DNA from: Oehlia diaphana
Lineage: Eukaryota; Glomeromycota; Glomeromycetes; Glomerales; Glomeraceae
Assembly (NCBI GenBank): GCA_003833135.1
Contig: QZLH01000019.1
Location: 102,575 to 125,940, forward strand
DNA length: 23,366 nt
Reading direction: 5' to 3'
Part shown: positions 6,016 to 14,625 of the stretch, piece by piece
Layout: the number at the start of each line of letters is the position of its first letter
How positions within the stretch are numbered: position 1 is the stretch's first letter
Position numbers and translations under genes: made by a program
Notes under the pieces: generated by a model
Seen by the model: only the letters and a program-made list of their open reading frames with translations
Database searches by the model: none
Told to the model about the DNA's origin: nothing

Positions 6016-6489
6016 CTACATAACAAAGAGATATTGTATTAAAAATTAATTGTGATATAAAAAAAACAATTTCTTTTTGTGATTGATTTGATTCTTCTAC
6101 TTTTAGATGATATTAAAATTTCTTTAATCCGAAATGGGTCGGAGATATTGAAAATAAACTAAATGAACTGATTGGTTAAAATATTCAGACTCTGAGAATG
6201 TATTTCCTTATTCCCTTTGATAGACGTTCACAATCTCGACAAATCATAATCTCGAAAATTTAAATCCCGATATTATCTCAAACATTTATTTTTATTCTTT
6301 TTTTTTTTAAGATGCAATAGATTTTTATTGAGAATTAAAAAAAATAATACTATGTTATTATAATATATACCTAGATTAAATATGTTGCTTGCATAAAATT
6401 AATATAAATTTACTGAAATATTAAAATTACATAAATGTTAAGTTACGGTATATTACCCTCGCGAAGTAGAGTTGCGGTTGTATTATTAG
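6016..6489. other. Intergenic, nothing recognised
   Basis: AT-rich sequence. The stretch at 6209-6280 contains several TCTCGA/AATCTCG words, but no gene, RNA or clear repeat unit was found. Confidence 0.5.
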
Positions 6490-7334
6490 AAATACAACAA
6501 TATAGCGTGTTGCAACGGTTAATTCCTTCTAATCATATTTAGTGCATCATTATAACACGACAATACAACGTGTTGTGACATTCGCAGATTTCAAAAATAA
6601 ATACAACCGTGTTGGACATTGCGCAATAAATGCAACCGCAACGTTATCTGATGATTTATAGTAGAAAATAAATTTTACGTAAACATAAAAACTTCCTTGG
6701 CCTGCAGAGAACATTACAATAAAACAAAGATAAAACAAATAATAAATAAATAAAAAACCTGAATAAAATAAAAATCCAAATAAAAGAAAAAAAAAGATAA
6801 AATAAAAATGAAAATTGGAAGTCTGGGCGATGGACTTGAGGTGACGAATCTGTAAGTCTCTTCTTATTACTGGACCACTACGATGAAGCGCAATTACCGG
6901 ACGATGGGGATCTCGATTATTTCGACCGATTCATAAATTATGCTCTACCGACTGCAGTTGGTTGCATAAACTAGAATAAAATAAAATAAAATAAAAAATT
7001 CTAAAAAATAAGATAATAACCATAATTAAATATACGATAATAATAAAATCTACTCTATTAACCAATGATCTAAAACTCAACCAATAGAATAAAGTAATTT
7101 TGCAATGATAACGTCTATATGTCCATGGAAAACCCCCATGGAAACGCAAAGTGTTTACTATTGTATCATTCACCTGCTAGCTATCAACGAAAGCGAATTC
7201 ATAAAATGGTGATGATGGAGGCTTGCCGATTAGTAAGGTTGGTACATCTCAAGGAGCATTACTTCATCTTCGACTTTGTCCTCGTTTATTGACGTGATGT
7301 CAATTTACGTTTAAGTTTTGTATCAATACCCCGT
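6490..7334. repeat. Tandem duplication, left copy
   Basis: This copy begins AAATACAACAATATAGC and ends GTATCAATACCCCGT, exactly as the right copy at 7343-8158 does, with only a few bases between them. Shared landmarks in the same order are GGTTAATTCCTTCTAATCAT, CAATACAACGTGTTGTGACA, ATGAAAATTGGAAG, TTACCGGACGATGGGGAT and GACTGCAGTTGGTTGCATAA. The copies differ by many substitutions and small indels, so the duplication is not recent. No terminal inverted repeats or target-site duplication were recognised. Confidence 0.9.
6840..6974 (+). pseudogene. Short conserved open frame, left duplicate copy
   Basis: This 44-codon open stretch follows an in-frame TGA and ends in TAG. It includes LLLDHYDEAQLPDDGDLDYF and NYALPTAVGCIN. 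The same frame is open in the right copy, and the two 9-bp length differences between the copies keep the frame. No start codon, splice acceptor or family was identified. A GTAAGT at the beginning of the frame could instead be a donor for the overlapping MKIGSLGDGLEVTNL reading. Best described as a possible coding remnant. Confidence 0.3.
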
Positions 7335-7342
7335 ATAATTAT

Positions 7343-8158
7343 AAATACAACAATATAGCATTGCAGCGCGGGTTGCAACGGTTAATTCCTTCTAATCATA
7401 TTTGGTGCATCATTAGATTACGACAATACAACGTGTTGTGACATTGCGCAGATTTCAAAAATAAATACAACCGCAACGCTATCTGATGATCTATAGTAGA
7501 AAATAAAATTTAAAACTTCCCTGGCCTGCAGTGAACATTACAATAAAACAAAGATAAACAAATAATAAAAACCCCAATAAAATAAAAAATCCAAATAAAA
7601 GAAATAAAAAAGATAAAATAAAAATGAAAATTGGAAGCCTGGGCGATGGACTGGAGGTGACGAATCTGTAAGTCTCTTGACTCTCTTCTTATTACTGGAC
7701 CACTACGATGAAGCGCAATTACCGGACGATGGGGATCCCGATAATTTCGACCGATTCATAAATTACGCGAGAGATGCTTTACCGACTGCAGTTGGTTGCA
7801 TAAACTAGAATAAAATAAAATAAAATAAAAAATTCTAAAAAATAAGATAATAAACCATAATTAATTTTATAATAATAATAAATCTACTACTCTATTAACC
7901 AATGATCTAAAACTCAACCAATAGAATAAAGTAATTATAAATTAAAGCCAATATAAAATTGCAGTCTATATATTCATGGAAACGCAAAGTATTTACTATT
8001 GTTATCATTCATCTGCTGGGCAAGCGAATTGATAGTGATGGTGGAGGCTTGTCGATCGGTAAGGTTGGTACATCGTCAAGAAGCATTATTTCATCATCTT
8101 TGTCCTCGTTCATTGACGTGATGTCAATTTACGTTTAAGTTTTGTATCAATACCCCGT
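7343..8158. repeat. Tandem duplication, right copy
   Basis: Direct repeat of 6490-7334, slightly shorter through several deletions, for example in the AAAACCCCCATGGAAACGC part of the left copy. It carries two extra 9-bp segments inside a shared open frame. The boundary words are the same in both copies, indicating one tandem duplication and not two independent insertions. Confidence 0.9.
7617..7808 (+). pseudogene. Short conserved open frame, right duplicate copy
   Basis: This is the counterpart of the frame in the left copy and is open for 63 codons before TAG. It contains TGGDESVSLLTLFLLL, then DHYDEAQLPDDGDPDNF, then NYARDALPTAVGCIN. Compared with the left copy it gains three codons after SVSL and three codons (ARD region) before ALPTAVG. 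The upstream TGA of the left copy is GGA here. There is no ATG in this frame, so it is either an internal exon or a relic. The product is unknown. Confidence 0.3.
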
Positions 8159-8679
8159 TGTCACTCCCATTCTACAGTATGTGAATAATGTGGTAGTCTG
8201 AGAAGTCTTTTGAGATGGTCAAACTTAATTTGGCTTTTATTGTGAATTAAGTGAAATCGTGCGAAGATATTAGTTATACATTATTTAACATGCGACAGAG
8301 CTTCCGAATTGATAGTAACATAAATAAAAAAGATGAAAATTTGTCTCATAGCCTTTTTCTAAATTCTGATATAAATTATAAGAGTTACAGTTTCTTCATG
8401 CAGGTAACAATATGGCATTTGAATTGATAATATATGTCTAGCCTTCTTTGTTTTAGTCTGTTACCGATAGGAAGTTGGTTGTAAAGTAATTTGACTATGA
8501 AGGCTCATAAATTGGGTTTCTTTAATAATATACATTTGAAGTAGTGGAATTGTTTTAGTACAGCTCACGACACAGTCGTCACATCCCACTTGAAACCCAT
8601 TTTATGATTAACAAAGCTTTCTAGGTTTACTTTTAGACGGTGACCATTCCCATATATCCTATGTTATTTTCTACTGAGG
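8159..8679. other. Intergenic, nothing recognised
   Basis: Mixed-composition sequence, less AT-extreme than its surroundings, with stop codons in all frames. No recognised protein, RNA or repeat was found. Confidence 0.5.
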
Positions 8680-10123: not shown

Positions 10124-10230
10124 AAAATATAAAAAATATTGAAATTTAATATTGAAATTAATTATAACAATTGCTTGGTAATTAATTATGGTGATTACTC
10201 AGTAACTTATGAGTGATAATAAGATCATAG

Positions 10231-10378
10231 CCTATTTTTATTATTTATAACAAATAAATCAATAATCAAATTTTAAATACAGTAATTATAATAATGATGA
10301 ATGATACTTACAGATTATTTAAAGCAAAAAAAAATCAATCATCAATAAGATGTCGTAATCAACTTTCGGATCAACAGC
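10231..10378 (-). other. Terminal exon with probable 3'UTR intron
   Basis: After the stop codon at 10373-10371 the transcript reads on for 59 nt to a donor at 10311 (GTAAGTATCATTCATCATT), identical in type to those of the microexon array. An acceptor AAAATAG ends at 10232, defining a likely 80-nt intron outside the coding region. The next segment (from 10231 down) runs to a possible AATAAA signal at 10123-10118. Confidence 0.5.
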
Positions 10379-11377
10379 CTAATTATTTTTTAATCGATCA
10401 ATAATCAAAATTTTCAAAAAAAAAATCAATAATTATAATAATGATAAATGATACTTACAAACTATTTATTATTAATCATCAATAAATAATATGTTAATAT
10501 TATCAAAAAGATAAATATTTAGTTGCTATAACAATGACAAATGATACTTACTTGCAACTATTTATTTAAAATAAAAATAAAAAGCGAAAATTAATAATTT
10601 TTTTTTCAAACATAATTAATTATATTAATAATAATGATGATTGATACTTACGGCCTATTTATTGACATAAAAAATGAAATTAACAGTTAATATCTCCCCG
10701 AAAAAAAACATAAAATAAAATAAAATAAATATCAATTATAATAATGATGAATGATACTTACAGGCTATTTATTATTTAAACAAAAAAAAAAATCAAAAAT
10801 CAATAAATAGTATATTAATATTTTCAAAAATATTTAATTGTAATAATAAAGACAAATGATACTTACTAATAAACCCCACTATTTATTATTAAATGAATAA
10901 AAAACGAAAATTAACAATTAACATTTTTTTTCCAAAAAATAATGGTTATAATAATGATAAATGATACGTACCACCTATTTATTATTAAAATAAAATAAGA
11001 AAAACGAAAATTAACAATATTTTTTTTTTTTTCAAAAATAATAATGATGAATATTAATTATAATAATACTTACACCAACCTATTTATTATTTAAATAAAT
11101 AAATAAAAAAATGAAAATTAACGATCAACAAAAATAATATTATAAATATAATGATGACGAATGATACTTACAGCCTATTTTTATTAATTAAAATAAATAT
11201 AAATAAATAAATAAAACGAAAATTAAATGGTTAATATTTTTTTCAATGAACAATAAATTAATAATAATAGTAATGATAGTTACATCCATCTATTTATTAA
11301 AATAAACCAAACCGAAAATTAAGTTAATATTTTTTTTTACAAAACAATAATGAATATTGATTTGTTGTAAGATTTAC
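10312..11377 (-). repeat. Array of homologous intron-microexon cassettes
   Basis: Ten coding-region introns and one further donor at 10311 share a common 5' part, consensus GTAAGTATCATTYATCATT followed by ATTATAATT. Most also share a 3' part consisting of GTTAATTTTCG, a T-rich stretch and TTAATAATAAATAG. The repeat period is about 85-115 bp. The microexon is the only variable segment between an acceptor and the next donor. The pattern points to tandem duplication of an intron plus tiny exon, followed by divergence of the coding triplets. Confidence 0.85.
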
Positions 11378-11498
11378 CAGGATGGACGACAGCCGGAGTA
11401 ACGTCAGATTTAGAGGCAGGTTCAAGTGGTGCTGCTAAAGTGACGGCAACAAAAGCAACAAAAATAGTTAATAATAGAAGGAAAATATTGAATCTCAT
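10371..11498 (-). CDS. Small secreted Cys-rich protein encoded by serial microexons
   Basis: Eleven coding exons on the minus strand: 11378-11498, 11284-11289, 11172-11174, 11074-11079, 10972-10974, 10867-10878, 10762-10764, 10652-10654, 10552-10557, 10459-10461 and 10371-10378 (ending in TGA). The coding length is 174 nt, giving 57 residues. Exon 1 starts MRFNIFLLLLTIFVAFVAV, a clear signal peptide with likely cleavage near Ala22-Ala23, followed by a short Pro/Ser/Val linker. The nine microexons plus the last exon encode DGCCWCVGFITCLAICC, with cysteines at 43, 44, 46, 52, 56 and 57. All introns are in phase 1 and 80-109 nt long. They begin GTAAGT or a variant (GTAAAT, GTAACT, GTACGT) and end AATAG or ATTAG. 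The open frame, all-multiple-of-three exons and Cys-rich product support the model. The family is not recognised. The tail is somewhat like CYSTM-type cysteine-rich hydrophobic modules, but that is only a resemblance. Export as a signal or effector peptide is inference. Confidence 0.8.
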
Positions 11499-14159: not shown

Positions 14160-14625
14160 TAGAGTTTTAAACAGGTTGACCAAATTCAGGTAACCTGACA
14201 GGTTGACCTGAATTTATCAGGTCAGGTTTAGCAATTTCAATTTTGTAATCTAAAACTACAATTTTATATAAGTAAGTTATAGTATCATAATTCACTTTTT
14301 ATATTGATTTATATATAAAAATGTGAATTGCAGTATGAGAATTCACATTTTTTTTATTGATTTTATATAAAAAAATTAGTTGCAGTGTTGCGATTCACAT
14401 TTTTATATGATTTTAATATAAAAAAGTGGATTGCAATATTTCAAAAAAAAATGTTTTGCACTATTTTTTTTTGATATTTTAATAAAAATCCTGATTTTTT
14501 CAGGTTTCAGTTCAAGTCAGGTTAAACAAATAACCTTATATAACCTGACCTGATCTGACCCGAAAAAAAATTTTAGGTCAAGTTTATCAATTAACCTGAC
14601 TTGACCTAATCTATTTAGAACTCTA
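14160..14625. mobile_element. hAT-like miniature element with internal foldbacks
   Basis: The termini TAGAGTTTTAAA and TTTAGAACTCTA are inverted copies with one mismatch. GATATCTT flanks both sides (14152-14159 and 14626-14633), a perfect 8-bp target duplication as expected for hAT elements. The subterminal regions repeat the words AGGTTGACC, AGGTCAGGTT and AACCTGACC in opposite orientations on the two sides. The centre holds three related segments containing TTCACATTTTT and ATATAAAAA. No transposase frame is present in these 466 bp. Confidence 0.8.

What the first reader, a model, noticed from the sequence alone, without database searches (positions are those of the whole stretch)
10371..11498. 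Secreted Cys-rich peptide whose mature part is assembled from nine consecutive microexons
Exon 1 (121 nt) encodes a textbook signal peptide. On the same strand nine tiny segments follow, each between an AATAG-type acceptor and a GTAAGT-type donor: 6, 3, 6, 3, 12, 3, 3, 6 and 3 nt. Joining them to exon 1 and the final exon gives DGCCWCVGFITCLAICC and a TGA, so an unpredicted frame stays open and ends cleanly in Cys-Cys. Serial microexon genes for secreted proteins are known in schistosomes (MEGs) and aphids (bicycle genes). I do not know of a described fungal system of this kind, so novelty is inference. Standard gene prediction would find only the first exon.
Basis: partly seen in the sequence, partly recalled or inferred. 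Interest (0 to 1): 0.95.

Follow-up and report, generated by a model that had tools for sequence, protein, structure and literature searches.

The report
Fungal genes built from codon-sized exons
In a root-symbiotic (Rhizophagus-type) fungus, a gene predicted to make a small secreted cysteine-rich peptide has nine 3-12-letter segments between strong splice sites that would likely be spliced together in order, and the same genome holds at least 30 kinase-like loci with rows of three-letter segments whose order avoids stop codons, so these too are likely translated exons.

Summary
On the minus strand, exon 1 (11498-11378), nine segments of 6, 3, 6, 3, 12, 3, 3, 6 and 3 nt and a last exon (10378-10371) join into one open frame ending DGCCWCVGFITCLAICC*; introns are 80-109 nt. 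A hand-joined window protein is 97% identical to R. irregularis. The genome holds one relative (C316) with a similar exon 1 and array. It also holds a far larger class: rows of 3-nt segments, many just upstream of kinase exons. In 22 loci TAG-N3-GTAAGT occurs 519 times sense, 0 antisense. All 30 best-scoring kinase loci carry such segments. Read in phase 1 and genomic order, 41 loci of this class give 1 stop in 649 codons; shuffled order gives 24.8 (minimum 12 of 5000). So there the segments are very likely joined in order and translated; for the window gene the same is inferred. No RNA was available. A public R. irregularis protein fits exon 1 spliced to the first microexon, then read through its donor. 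I found no description of this in fungi in the open papers searched. The peptide's role is unknown; secreted symbiosis peptide is my guess.

The parts
11378..11498 (-). exon 1: ATG, hydrophobic signal-peptide-like start (MRFNIFLLLLTIFVAFVAVTLA), then APLEPASKSDVTPAVVHP; ends in phase 1
   Evidence: homologous protein in R. irregularis (P0001); similar exon 1 on C316. Signal peptide judged by eye, no predictor run
11284..11289 (-). microexon 1 ATGGAT (6 nt)
   Evidence: the public R. irregularis protein P0001 ends as if this acceptor were used
11172..11174 (-). microexon 2 GCT (3 nt)
11074..11079 (-). microexon 3 GTTGGT (6 nt)
10972..10974 (-). microexon 4 GTG (3 nt), donor GTACGT
10867..10878 (-). 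microexon 5 TGGGGTTTATTA (12 nt)
10762..10764 (-). microexon 6 CCT (3 nt)
10652..10654 (-). microexon 7 GCC (3 nt)
10552..10557 (-). microexon 8 TTGCAA (6 nt)
10459..10461 (-). microexon 9 TTT (3 nt)
10371..10378 (-). coding part of the last exon GCTGTTGA, ending in Cys-Cys-stop
10379..11377 (-). ten introns of 80-109 nt between these exons, alike at donor (mostly GTAAGTAT), a branch-like TTAAC in several, and acceptor (mostly AATAAATAG), diverged in between
10306..10320 (-). degenerate further unit past the stop: AAATAA|TCT|GTAAGT, acceptor AG lost, donor kept
   Evidence: sequence
10221..10236 (-). further AATAG|GCTATGATCTT site past the stop, a possible old or alternative last exon
   Evidence: sequence; not tested

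Best explanation
This locus holds an array of nine 3-12-nt segments between strong splice sites behind a signal-peptide-like exon, and it is likely a serial microexon gene whose introns would be removed one after another to build a predicted secreted peptide with a six-cysteine tail. Shown by sequence: the segments, their sites, equal phase (each starts at codon position 2), lengths in multiples of three, one open frame, one relative in the genome, and a genome-wide class of kinase-like loci with rows of 3-nt segments whose order avoids stops. Inferred mechanism: introns of about 90 nt are each recognised across the intron. The donor GTAAGTAT can pair over eight bases with this genome's U1 RNA start (ATACTTAC), which would make up for exons too short to help. 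Since two splice complexes are unlikely to fit on three bases at once, neighbouring introns would leave in turn. Inferred evolution: the unit 'intron plus codon-sized exon' duplicates in tandem, and because the units are phase-1 and multiples of three, they can be gained, lost or skipped without breaking the frame. Inferred role: a fast-changing secreted peptide, perhaps acting at the plant interface.
For: Window array exact. Relative on C316 with similar exon 1 (16 identical columns over its 25 residues), the same donor/acceptor/branch layout, its first ten microexons all multiples of 3 (6, 9, 3, 3, 3, 9, 3, 3, 3, 3; one of them with acceptor ATCAG, placed by hand), and a read-out RDCEVKCCWVGGYCVCC with the next segment, also six Cys in 17. 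AATAGNNNGTAAGTATC occurs 8 times genome-wide (reversed control 1), all in these two loci. Context: TATAGNNNGTAAGTTAT 720 times genome-wide against 5 for the reversed control; in 22 loci sense TAG-Nk-GTAAGT k=3: 519, k=1: 13, k=6: 14, k=4: 0, antisense k=3: 0. Phase-1 stops: 1 of 537 against a shuffle mean of 20.8, min 9 of 1000; softer parse 2 of 546 against 20.1, min 8 of 2000; 21 further loci 0 of 139 against 5.2, 8 of 5000 shuffles as low; pooled 1 of 649 against 24.8, min 12 of 5000. The string TTTAG|A|GTAAG, a 1-nt exon, occurs in 24 of 30 kinase loci; in L025 it moves phase 1 to the kinase's phase 2. All 512 skip subsets of the window microexons stay free of premature stops. The public R. 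irregularis protein P0001 fits exon 1 joined to microexon 1. Donors of nine ordinary introns of one window gene, read by eye: 0 of 9 GTAAGT.
Against: No RNA, long-read or peptide data could be consulted; splicing of this locus is inferred. P0001 reads through the donor of microexon 1 to a stop, and two public kinase models inspected (P0123, P0124, of 8 fetched) bridge the array in other ways. The window array alone is too short for the stop test. The Cys count at the joins is order-dependent in the window (6 against 3.6 expected, p 0.005, post hoc) but not in C316 (6 against 5.5, p 0.49). The 3' end of the C316 gene does not close cleanly: segments of 5, 3, 9 and 20 nt with an uncertain stop. 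The genome search tool found only the query's own exon 1 each time, so family size rests on the intron pattern. In the 21-locus replicate the wrong phase 2 was also low (8 against 13.8, 70 of 5000). The shuffle test cannot judge phase 0, whose stops do not depend on order (5 of 586).
Confidence: 0.78

Rival explanations
1. The array is a non-coding intronic satellite removed as one ~1-kb intron: exon 1 joins the last exon and the product ends VVHPGCC, or the locus is a dead gene.
For: Tandem duplication alone would give similar spacing and similar segment lengths. Public kinase models P0123 and P0124 do not contain the array read-out. No transcript seen.
Against: In the kinase-type class the order of segments avoids stops in phase 1, and a 1-nt exon restores the kinase frame; a satellite would do neither. 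In the window, splice sites stay strong while intron middles diverge, and the one unit past the stop has lost its acceptor.
Confidence: 0.12
2. Only the first junction is used and the product is the short peptide ...HPDGCNYHYYYY, as in the public R. irregularis protein; the rest of the array is 3' untranslated or decaying.
For: P0001 / RhiirC2_781697 has exactly this form.
Against: It needs the donor of microexon 1 (GTAACT, not the perfect GTAAGT) to be ignored; the tail NYHYYYY is translated intron. It leaves eight further matched acceptor/donor pairs and the common frame unexplained.
Confidence: 0.06
3. The array is mainly a switchboard: microexons are skipped in varying sets, giving many in-frame peptide forms from one gene.
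For: All 512 skip subsets keep the frame without a premature stop. Very small exons are often skipped in other organisms (general knowledge).
Against: Seven of nine donors are GTAAGTAT, a perfect U1 match, which favours steady inclusion. In kinase arrays skipping could create stops, and order is kept, which points to full inclusion there.
Confidence: 0.2

Closest known systems
Schistosome micro-exon genes (MEGs)
   Same: Signal-peptide-like first exon followed by a run of very small in-frame exons; product placed at the host interface (MEG features recalled; only search listings seen).
   Different: Fungus; five of nine exons here are just 3 nt; tandem alike introns; no sequence relation found (2 hits, one R. 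irregularis, one JGI hypothetical protein). The kinase arrays are not small-secreted-protein genes.
Aphid bicycle genes (PMC9168663, passages read)
   Same: Many small internal exons almost all starting at codon position 2, as here; missed by ordinary homology search; putative effectors.
   Different: Bicycle genes average about 17 exons; the 'megacycle' gene has over 100 microexons for about 2000 aa, so roughly 60 nt each (my division), not 3. Two CYC motifs (recalled) are absent here.
SP7-like effectors of Rhizophagus (PMC11333574, passages read)
   Same: Secreted effectors of the same fungi with a repeated, modular make-up and a shared gene structure.
   Different: Their units are peptide repeats, not codon-sized exons; the window peptide has no such repeats.
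Single ultra-small exons: Fusarium CYP621A (PMC12940212, outline and abstract), plant APC11/VPS55 (PMC8831610, passages), Trichoderma Xlr2 (PMC11121469, passages)
   Same: Very small exons (1 nt in Fusarium CYP621A, plant APC11 and VPS55) spliced precisely; annotation often misses them; GTRAGT donors around the plant VPS55 1-nt exon; introns beside plant microexons removed consecutively.
   Different: The cases I saw are single exons or a close pair (5 and 12 nt in rice); here 9 in a row, and in the kinase gene L025 about 78 three-nt exons plus a 1-nt exon in a row.

Membership tests
Schistosome MEG | coding region largely made of serial short in-frame exons | tested here: met
   nine of nine multiples of 3, one phase; but exon 1 still codes 40 of 57 residues
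Schistosome MEG | signal peptide | tested here: inconclusive
   hydrophobic start by eye; no signal-peptide predictor available
Schistosome MEG | sequence relation to a MEG family | tested here: not met
   2 hits at E<=1: one R. irregularis (P0001), one JGI hypothetical protein (P0002)
Schistosome MEG | spliced transcripts with the microexons | not testable with these tools
   no RNA data
Aphid bicycle genes | internal exons small and starting at codon position 2 | tested here: met
   all microexons follow a 1-base carry
Aphid bicycle genes | CYC motifs (recalled) | tested here: not met
   peptide has no CYC
SP7-like effectors | imperfect peptide repeats | tested here: not met
   17-aa tail without repeats, by eye
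Kinase-like family with 3-nt exon arrays (this genome) | GTAAGTTAT-type intron and kinase exon | tested here: not met
   window gene has GTAAGTATC-type introns and no kinase match: same architecture, different gene and intron family

The most novel reading that the evidence does not exclude
Rhizophagus-type fungi have codon-per-exon genes: strings of up to about 80 consecutive 3-nt exons, each framed by its own ~95-bp repeated intron with a strong U1 site, often closed by a 1-nt exon that resets the frame. They build the region before the catalytic domain of dozens of kinases and the cysteine tail of small secreted peptides. This is a way to evolve protein sequence one residue at a time by duplicating and deleting exon units, and it is invisible to present annotation.
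Probability: 0.65. Interest if true: 0.96.

Novelty: new variant of a known kind. Interest (0 to 1): 0.92.

Why it matters
If RNA confirms it, a spliceosome routinely joins dozens of 3-nt exons, and even 1-nt exons, in one transcript. That would test how exons too short for exon recognition are found, and whether neighbouring introns leave in a fixed order. It would also mean that whole protein segments of widespread plant symbionts, in kinases and possibly in secreted peptides, are missing from current gene models. It gives a clear evolutionary model: codon-sized exon units that duplicate in tandem.

Tried and rejected
Chance: rejected by shuffles and reversed controls. Neutral satellite: rejected for the kinase-type class by the order-shuffle stop test, less directly for the window gene. 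Other frames: phase 2 of those arrays gives 85 stops of 537, 89 of 546 and 8 of 139; phase 0 gives 5 of 586, 5 of 605 and 0 of 160 in the same calls, counts that do not depend on order, so the shuffle cannot exclude phase 0; what speaks against it is the frame of the flanking exons in L025. Stops in the phase-1 tests: one in L040 beside over-long gaps, one more in L035 in the softer parse. Antisense strand: no k=3 segments, but 10 at k=12 and 7 at k=16, not looked into.

Led nowhere: exon-1 protein searches of the genome found only themselves. An R. irregularis kinase model (P0127) carries an odd Met/Gly/Asn-rich stretch before the kinase; a search of this genome with it was empty, so I could not tell whether it is read from microexons. 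Pfam: nothing above cut-off for the peptide (8xMP at E 0.78), kinase for L025. The genome-contig scan gave 5 single matches in unrelated bacteria, taken as chance; the viral-contig scan gave none. A pattern search for arrays with GTATGT donors did not complete. No structure prediction: by its description the tool takes sequences read from the DNA, and a spliced protein is not one; I did not send it. Not done because capped at 0: metagenome contigs, which might hold the contig of P0002.

Literature: searches (open-licence PMC papers only; two searches listed only 15 of 714 and 12 of 149 papers). 'microexons' with 'rhizophagus irregularis': 0 papers.

Full report
WHAT IS THERE. Exon 1 starts with ATG and a hydrophobic stretch. 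Nine segments follow between AATAG acceptors and donors that are GTAAGTAT in seven cases, GTAACT and GTACGT in the others; their lengths are 6, 3, 6, 3, 12, 3, 3, 6 and 3 nt. A last exon gives Cys-Cys-stop. Joined, they give 174 nt without an internal stop: MRFNIFLLLLTIFVAFVAVTLAAPLEPASKSDVTPAVVHPDGCCWCVGFITCLAICC. The introns are 80-109 nt. AATAG-N0-15-GTAAGT occurs 7 times in the window, all here; shuffles give 0.33. Past the stop lies one more unit whose acceptor has lost its G (AAATAA|TCT|GTAAGT), as expected if only the units before the stop are kept.

WHOSE GENOME. The window lies in a 108.8-Mb assembly of 1672 contigs. A carnosinase-like protein joined by hand from exons at 16.3-18.5 kb is 97% identical to R. 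irregularis DAOM 197198 and 86% to Funneliformis mosseae, so this is R. irregularis or a close Rhizophagus. Exon 1 found two relatives among 5.8 billion proteins. One is RhiirC2_781697 of R. irregularis, MKFNIFLLLLTIFVAFVAVTLAAPLEPASKSDVTPAVHPDGCNYHYYYY. Its end equals, by hand translation, the window's exon 1 joined to microexon 1 and read on through the donor to the first stop (DGC, then NYHYYYY). I saw the protein, not its DNA; it suggests that a public gene model uses the first acceptor and then fails at the 6-nt exon. The other is a JGI hypothetical protein that appears to read on into intron 1.

A RELATIVE. A genome-wide pattern for two units in a row (15 hits) gave five hits here and five at C316:83824-84623; the other five are single places elsewhere. 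The C316 locus starts MNFNIFLLFLIIFSATALAIPLVEE, then carries microexons GCGATT, GTGAAGTTA, AAT, GCT, GCT, GGGTTGGTG, GTT, ATT, GTG, TCT, all multiples of three and in phase 1, reading RDCEVKCCWVGGYCVCC with the next segment. Both tails have six Cys in 17 residues and share CCW. The 3' end of C316 is unclear (segments of 5, 3, 9, 20 nt). AATAGNNNGTAAGTATC occurs 8 times in the genome, four in each of these two loci.

THE LARGER CLASS. The looser pattern gave 191 hits against 25 for the reversed control. Of the hundred or so places listed, most fall in clusters with another repeated intron (GTAAGTTATTTATTTAATTC...AACTAAC...TAG). TATAGNNNGTAAGTTAT occurs 720 times against 5. I fetched 20 such loci, chosen from the listed places. 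With the two secreted-type loci (113,189 bases in all) they hold 519 sense TAG-N3-GTAAGT, 13 with 1 nt, 14 with 6 nt, 2 each with 2, 5, 9, 10 and 12 nt, 1 with 7, 0 with 4, and 0 antisense with 3 nt. By eye, 13 of the 20 run into the start of a kinase exon within the stretch held. A search with that exon scored 150 of 1822 candidates; the 30 best were cut out, nine of which overlap loci. All 30 carry strict 3-nt segments upstream on the kinase strand (2 to 14 each), and 24 of 30 carry the exact string TTTAG|A|GTAAG, a 1-nt exon (a notebook line says 23, which is wrong). In L025 the chain from the acidic N-terminal exon to the kinase has about 78 three-nt exons plus the 1-nt exon and reads ALNDWWIGIDYRDD...KKRTIAFEYGKSGN in frame with the kinase (two units adjusted by hand). 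By eye, the F before EYGKSGN falls on the F of an ordinary kinase of this genome (NFKNWTSGN). Only the L025 model was checked with Pfam (kinase). Two loci (L035, L038) read out hydrophobic, membrane-like stretches.

ARE THE SEGMENTS TRANSLATED? If they are joined in order in phase 1, a stop arises only where a segment ending in T meets one starting AA, AG or GA. A parser that knows nothing of frames gave 586 three-nt segments in 49 runs from the 20 loci: 1 stop in 537 codons, against 20.8 when order is shuffled within runs (min 9 of 1000); phase 2 had 85 against 74.7. A softer parse: 2 of 546 against 20.1 (min 8 of 2000). The 21 other kinase loci: 0 of 139 against 5.2, with 8 of 5000 shuffles as low; in that smaller set phase 2 was also below its shuffle mean (8 against 13.8; 70 of 5000 as low), so this replicate is weaker than the first. 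Pooled over 41 loci: 1 of 649 against 24.8 (min 12 of 5000). Junction counts T|AA, T|AG, T|GA were 0, 1, 0 against 6.9, 9.6, 4.2. I take this as strong evidence that these arrays are spliced in order and translated. For the window gene this is inference by analogy, plus its own frame, lengths and relative.

HOW IT LIKELY WORKS. The genome's best U1 RNA gene begins ATACTTACCTG, so GTAAGTAT can pair over eight bases. Of nine ordinary introns in the window's carnosinase-like gene, none has GTAAGT (read by eye). Strong donors and short introns suggest recognition across each intron; neighbouring introns would then leave in turn. In plants, introns beside microexons are likely removed consecutively, and the 1-nt exon of VPS55 carries GTRAGT donors (PMC8831610, passages). 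Units that are all phase 1 and multiples of three can be added, lost or skipped freely: all 512 subsets of the nine window microexons are free of premature stops. Within each locus aligned introns are on average 66% identical, between loci 63%, in very AT-rich sequence, with conserved ends and often a TTAAC branch-like site.

AGAINST AND OPEN. No RNA. The Cys count at joins is order-dependent in the window (6 against 3.6, p 0.005, post hoc) but not in C316 (6 against 5.5, p 0.49), although 60% of random orders of the C316 microexons would contain a stop and the real order does not. Public kinase models P0123 and P0124 lack the array read-out. Secretion is judged by eye; function is a guess.

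COMPARISON. It works like MEGs and bicycle genes (serial small in-phase exons) but is not a member by sequence. The 1-nt exons I found in print are single cases (PMC12940212, abstract; PMC8831610, passages); a 2024 abstract says functional microexons had not been described in filamentous fungi (PMC11121469). I found no paper on Rhizophagus microexons in the searches, which cover open-licence papers only.

Noticed in passing
L024-L043 and L044-L073 (e.g. C268:96500-106499, L025): Kinase-like loci with rows of 3-nt exons, mostly with a 1-nt exon just before the kinase exon; nearly stop-free when read in order in phase 1.
   Followed up: yes
L035 (C170:3500-10500) and L038 (C324:22000-27000): Microexon chains that read out strongly hydrophobic, membrane-helix-like stretches (e.g. 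NWAVVACVVGLITIVTVCLVGIVGQYK); kinase exons lie further along the same strand of both contigs (C170:2825, C324:15502).
   Followed up: partly
public R. irregularis proteins P0123, P0124: Annotated kinases jump from ...KESK to FGKSGN with a few odd residues, as if gene predictors bridged the array with a made-up small exon or read-through.
   Followed up: partly
P0127 (R. irregularis, partial kinase): Odd Met/Gly/Asn-rich stretch before the kinase that could be microexons read in another frame; no match in this genome.
   Followed up: partly
window about 6450-7310 and 7345-8160: Two long, similar direct copies of a stretch, seen by eye (e.g. 'ttggaagtctgggcgatggactt...' and 'ttggaagcctgggcgatggactg...').
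   Followed up: no
window about 18487-16285 (-) and 19570-18813 (-): Ordinary genes: a carnosinase/Cys-Gly dipeptidase-like M20 peptidase, and a gene that looks like a protein phosphatase inhibitor 2 (by eye).
   Followed up: partly
window about 14170-14600: Repeated AGGTCAGGTT/AACCTGACC-like words, of unknown origin (by eye).
   Followed up: no
antisense strand of the 22 loci: TAG-Nk-GTAAGT occurs 10 times at k=12 and 7 times at k=16 on the antisense strand, unexplained.
   Followed up: no
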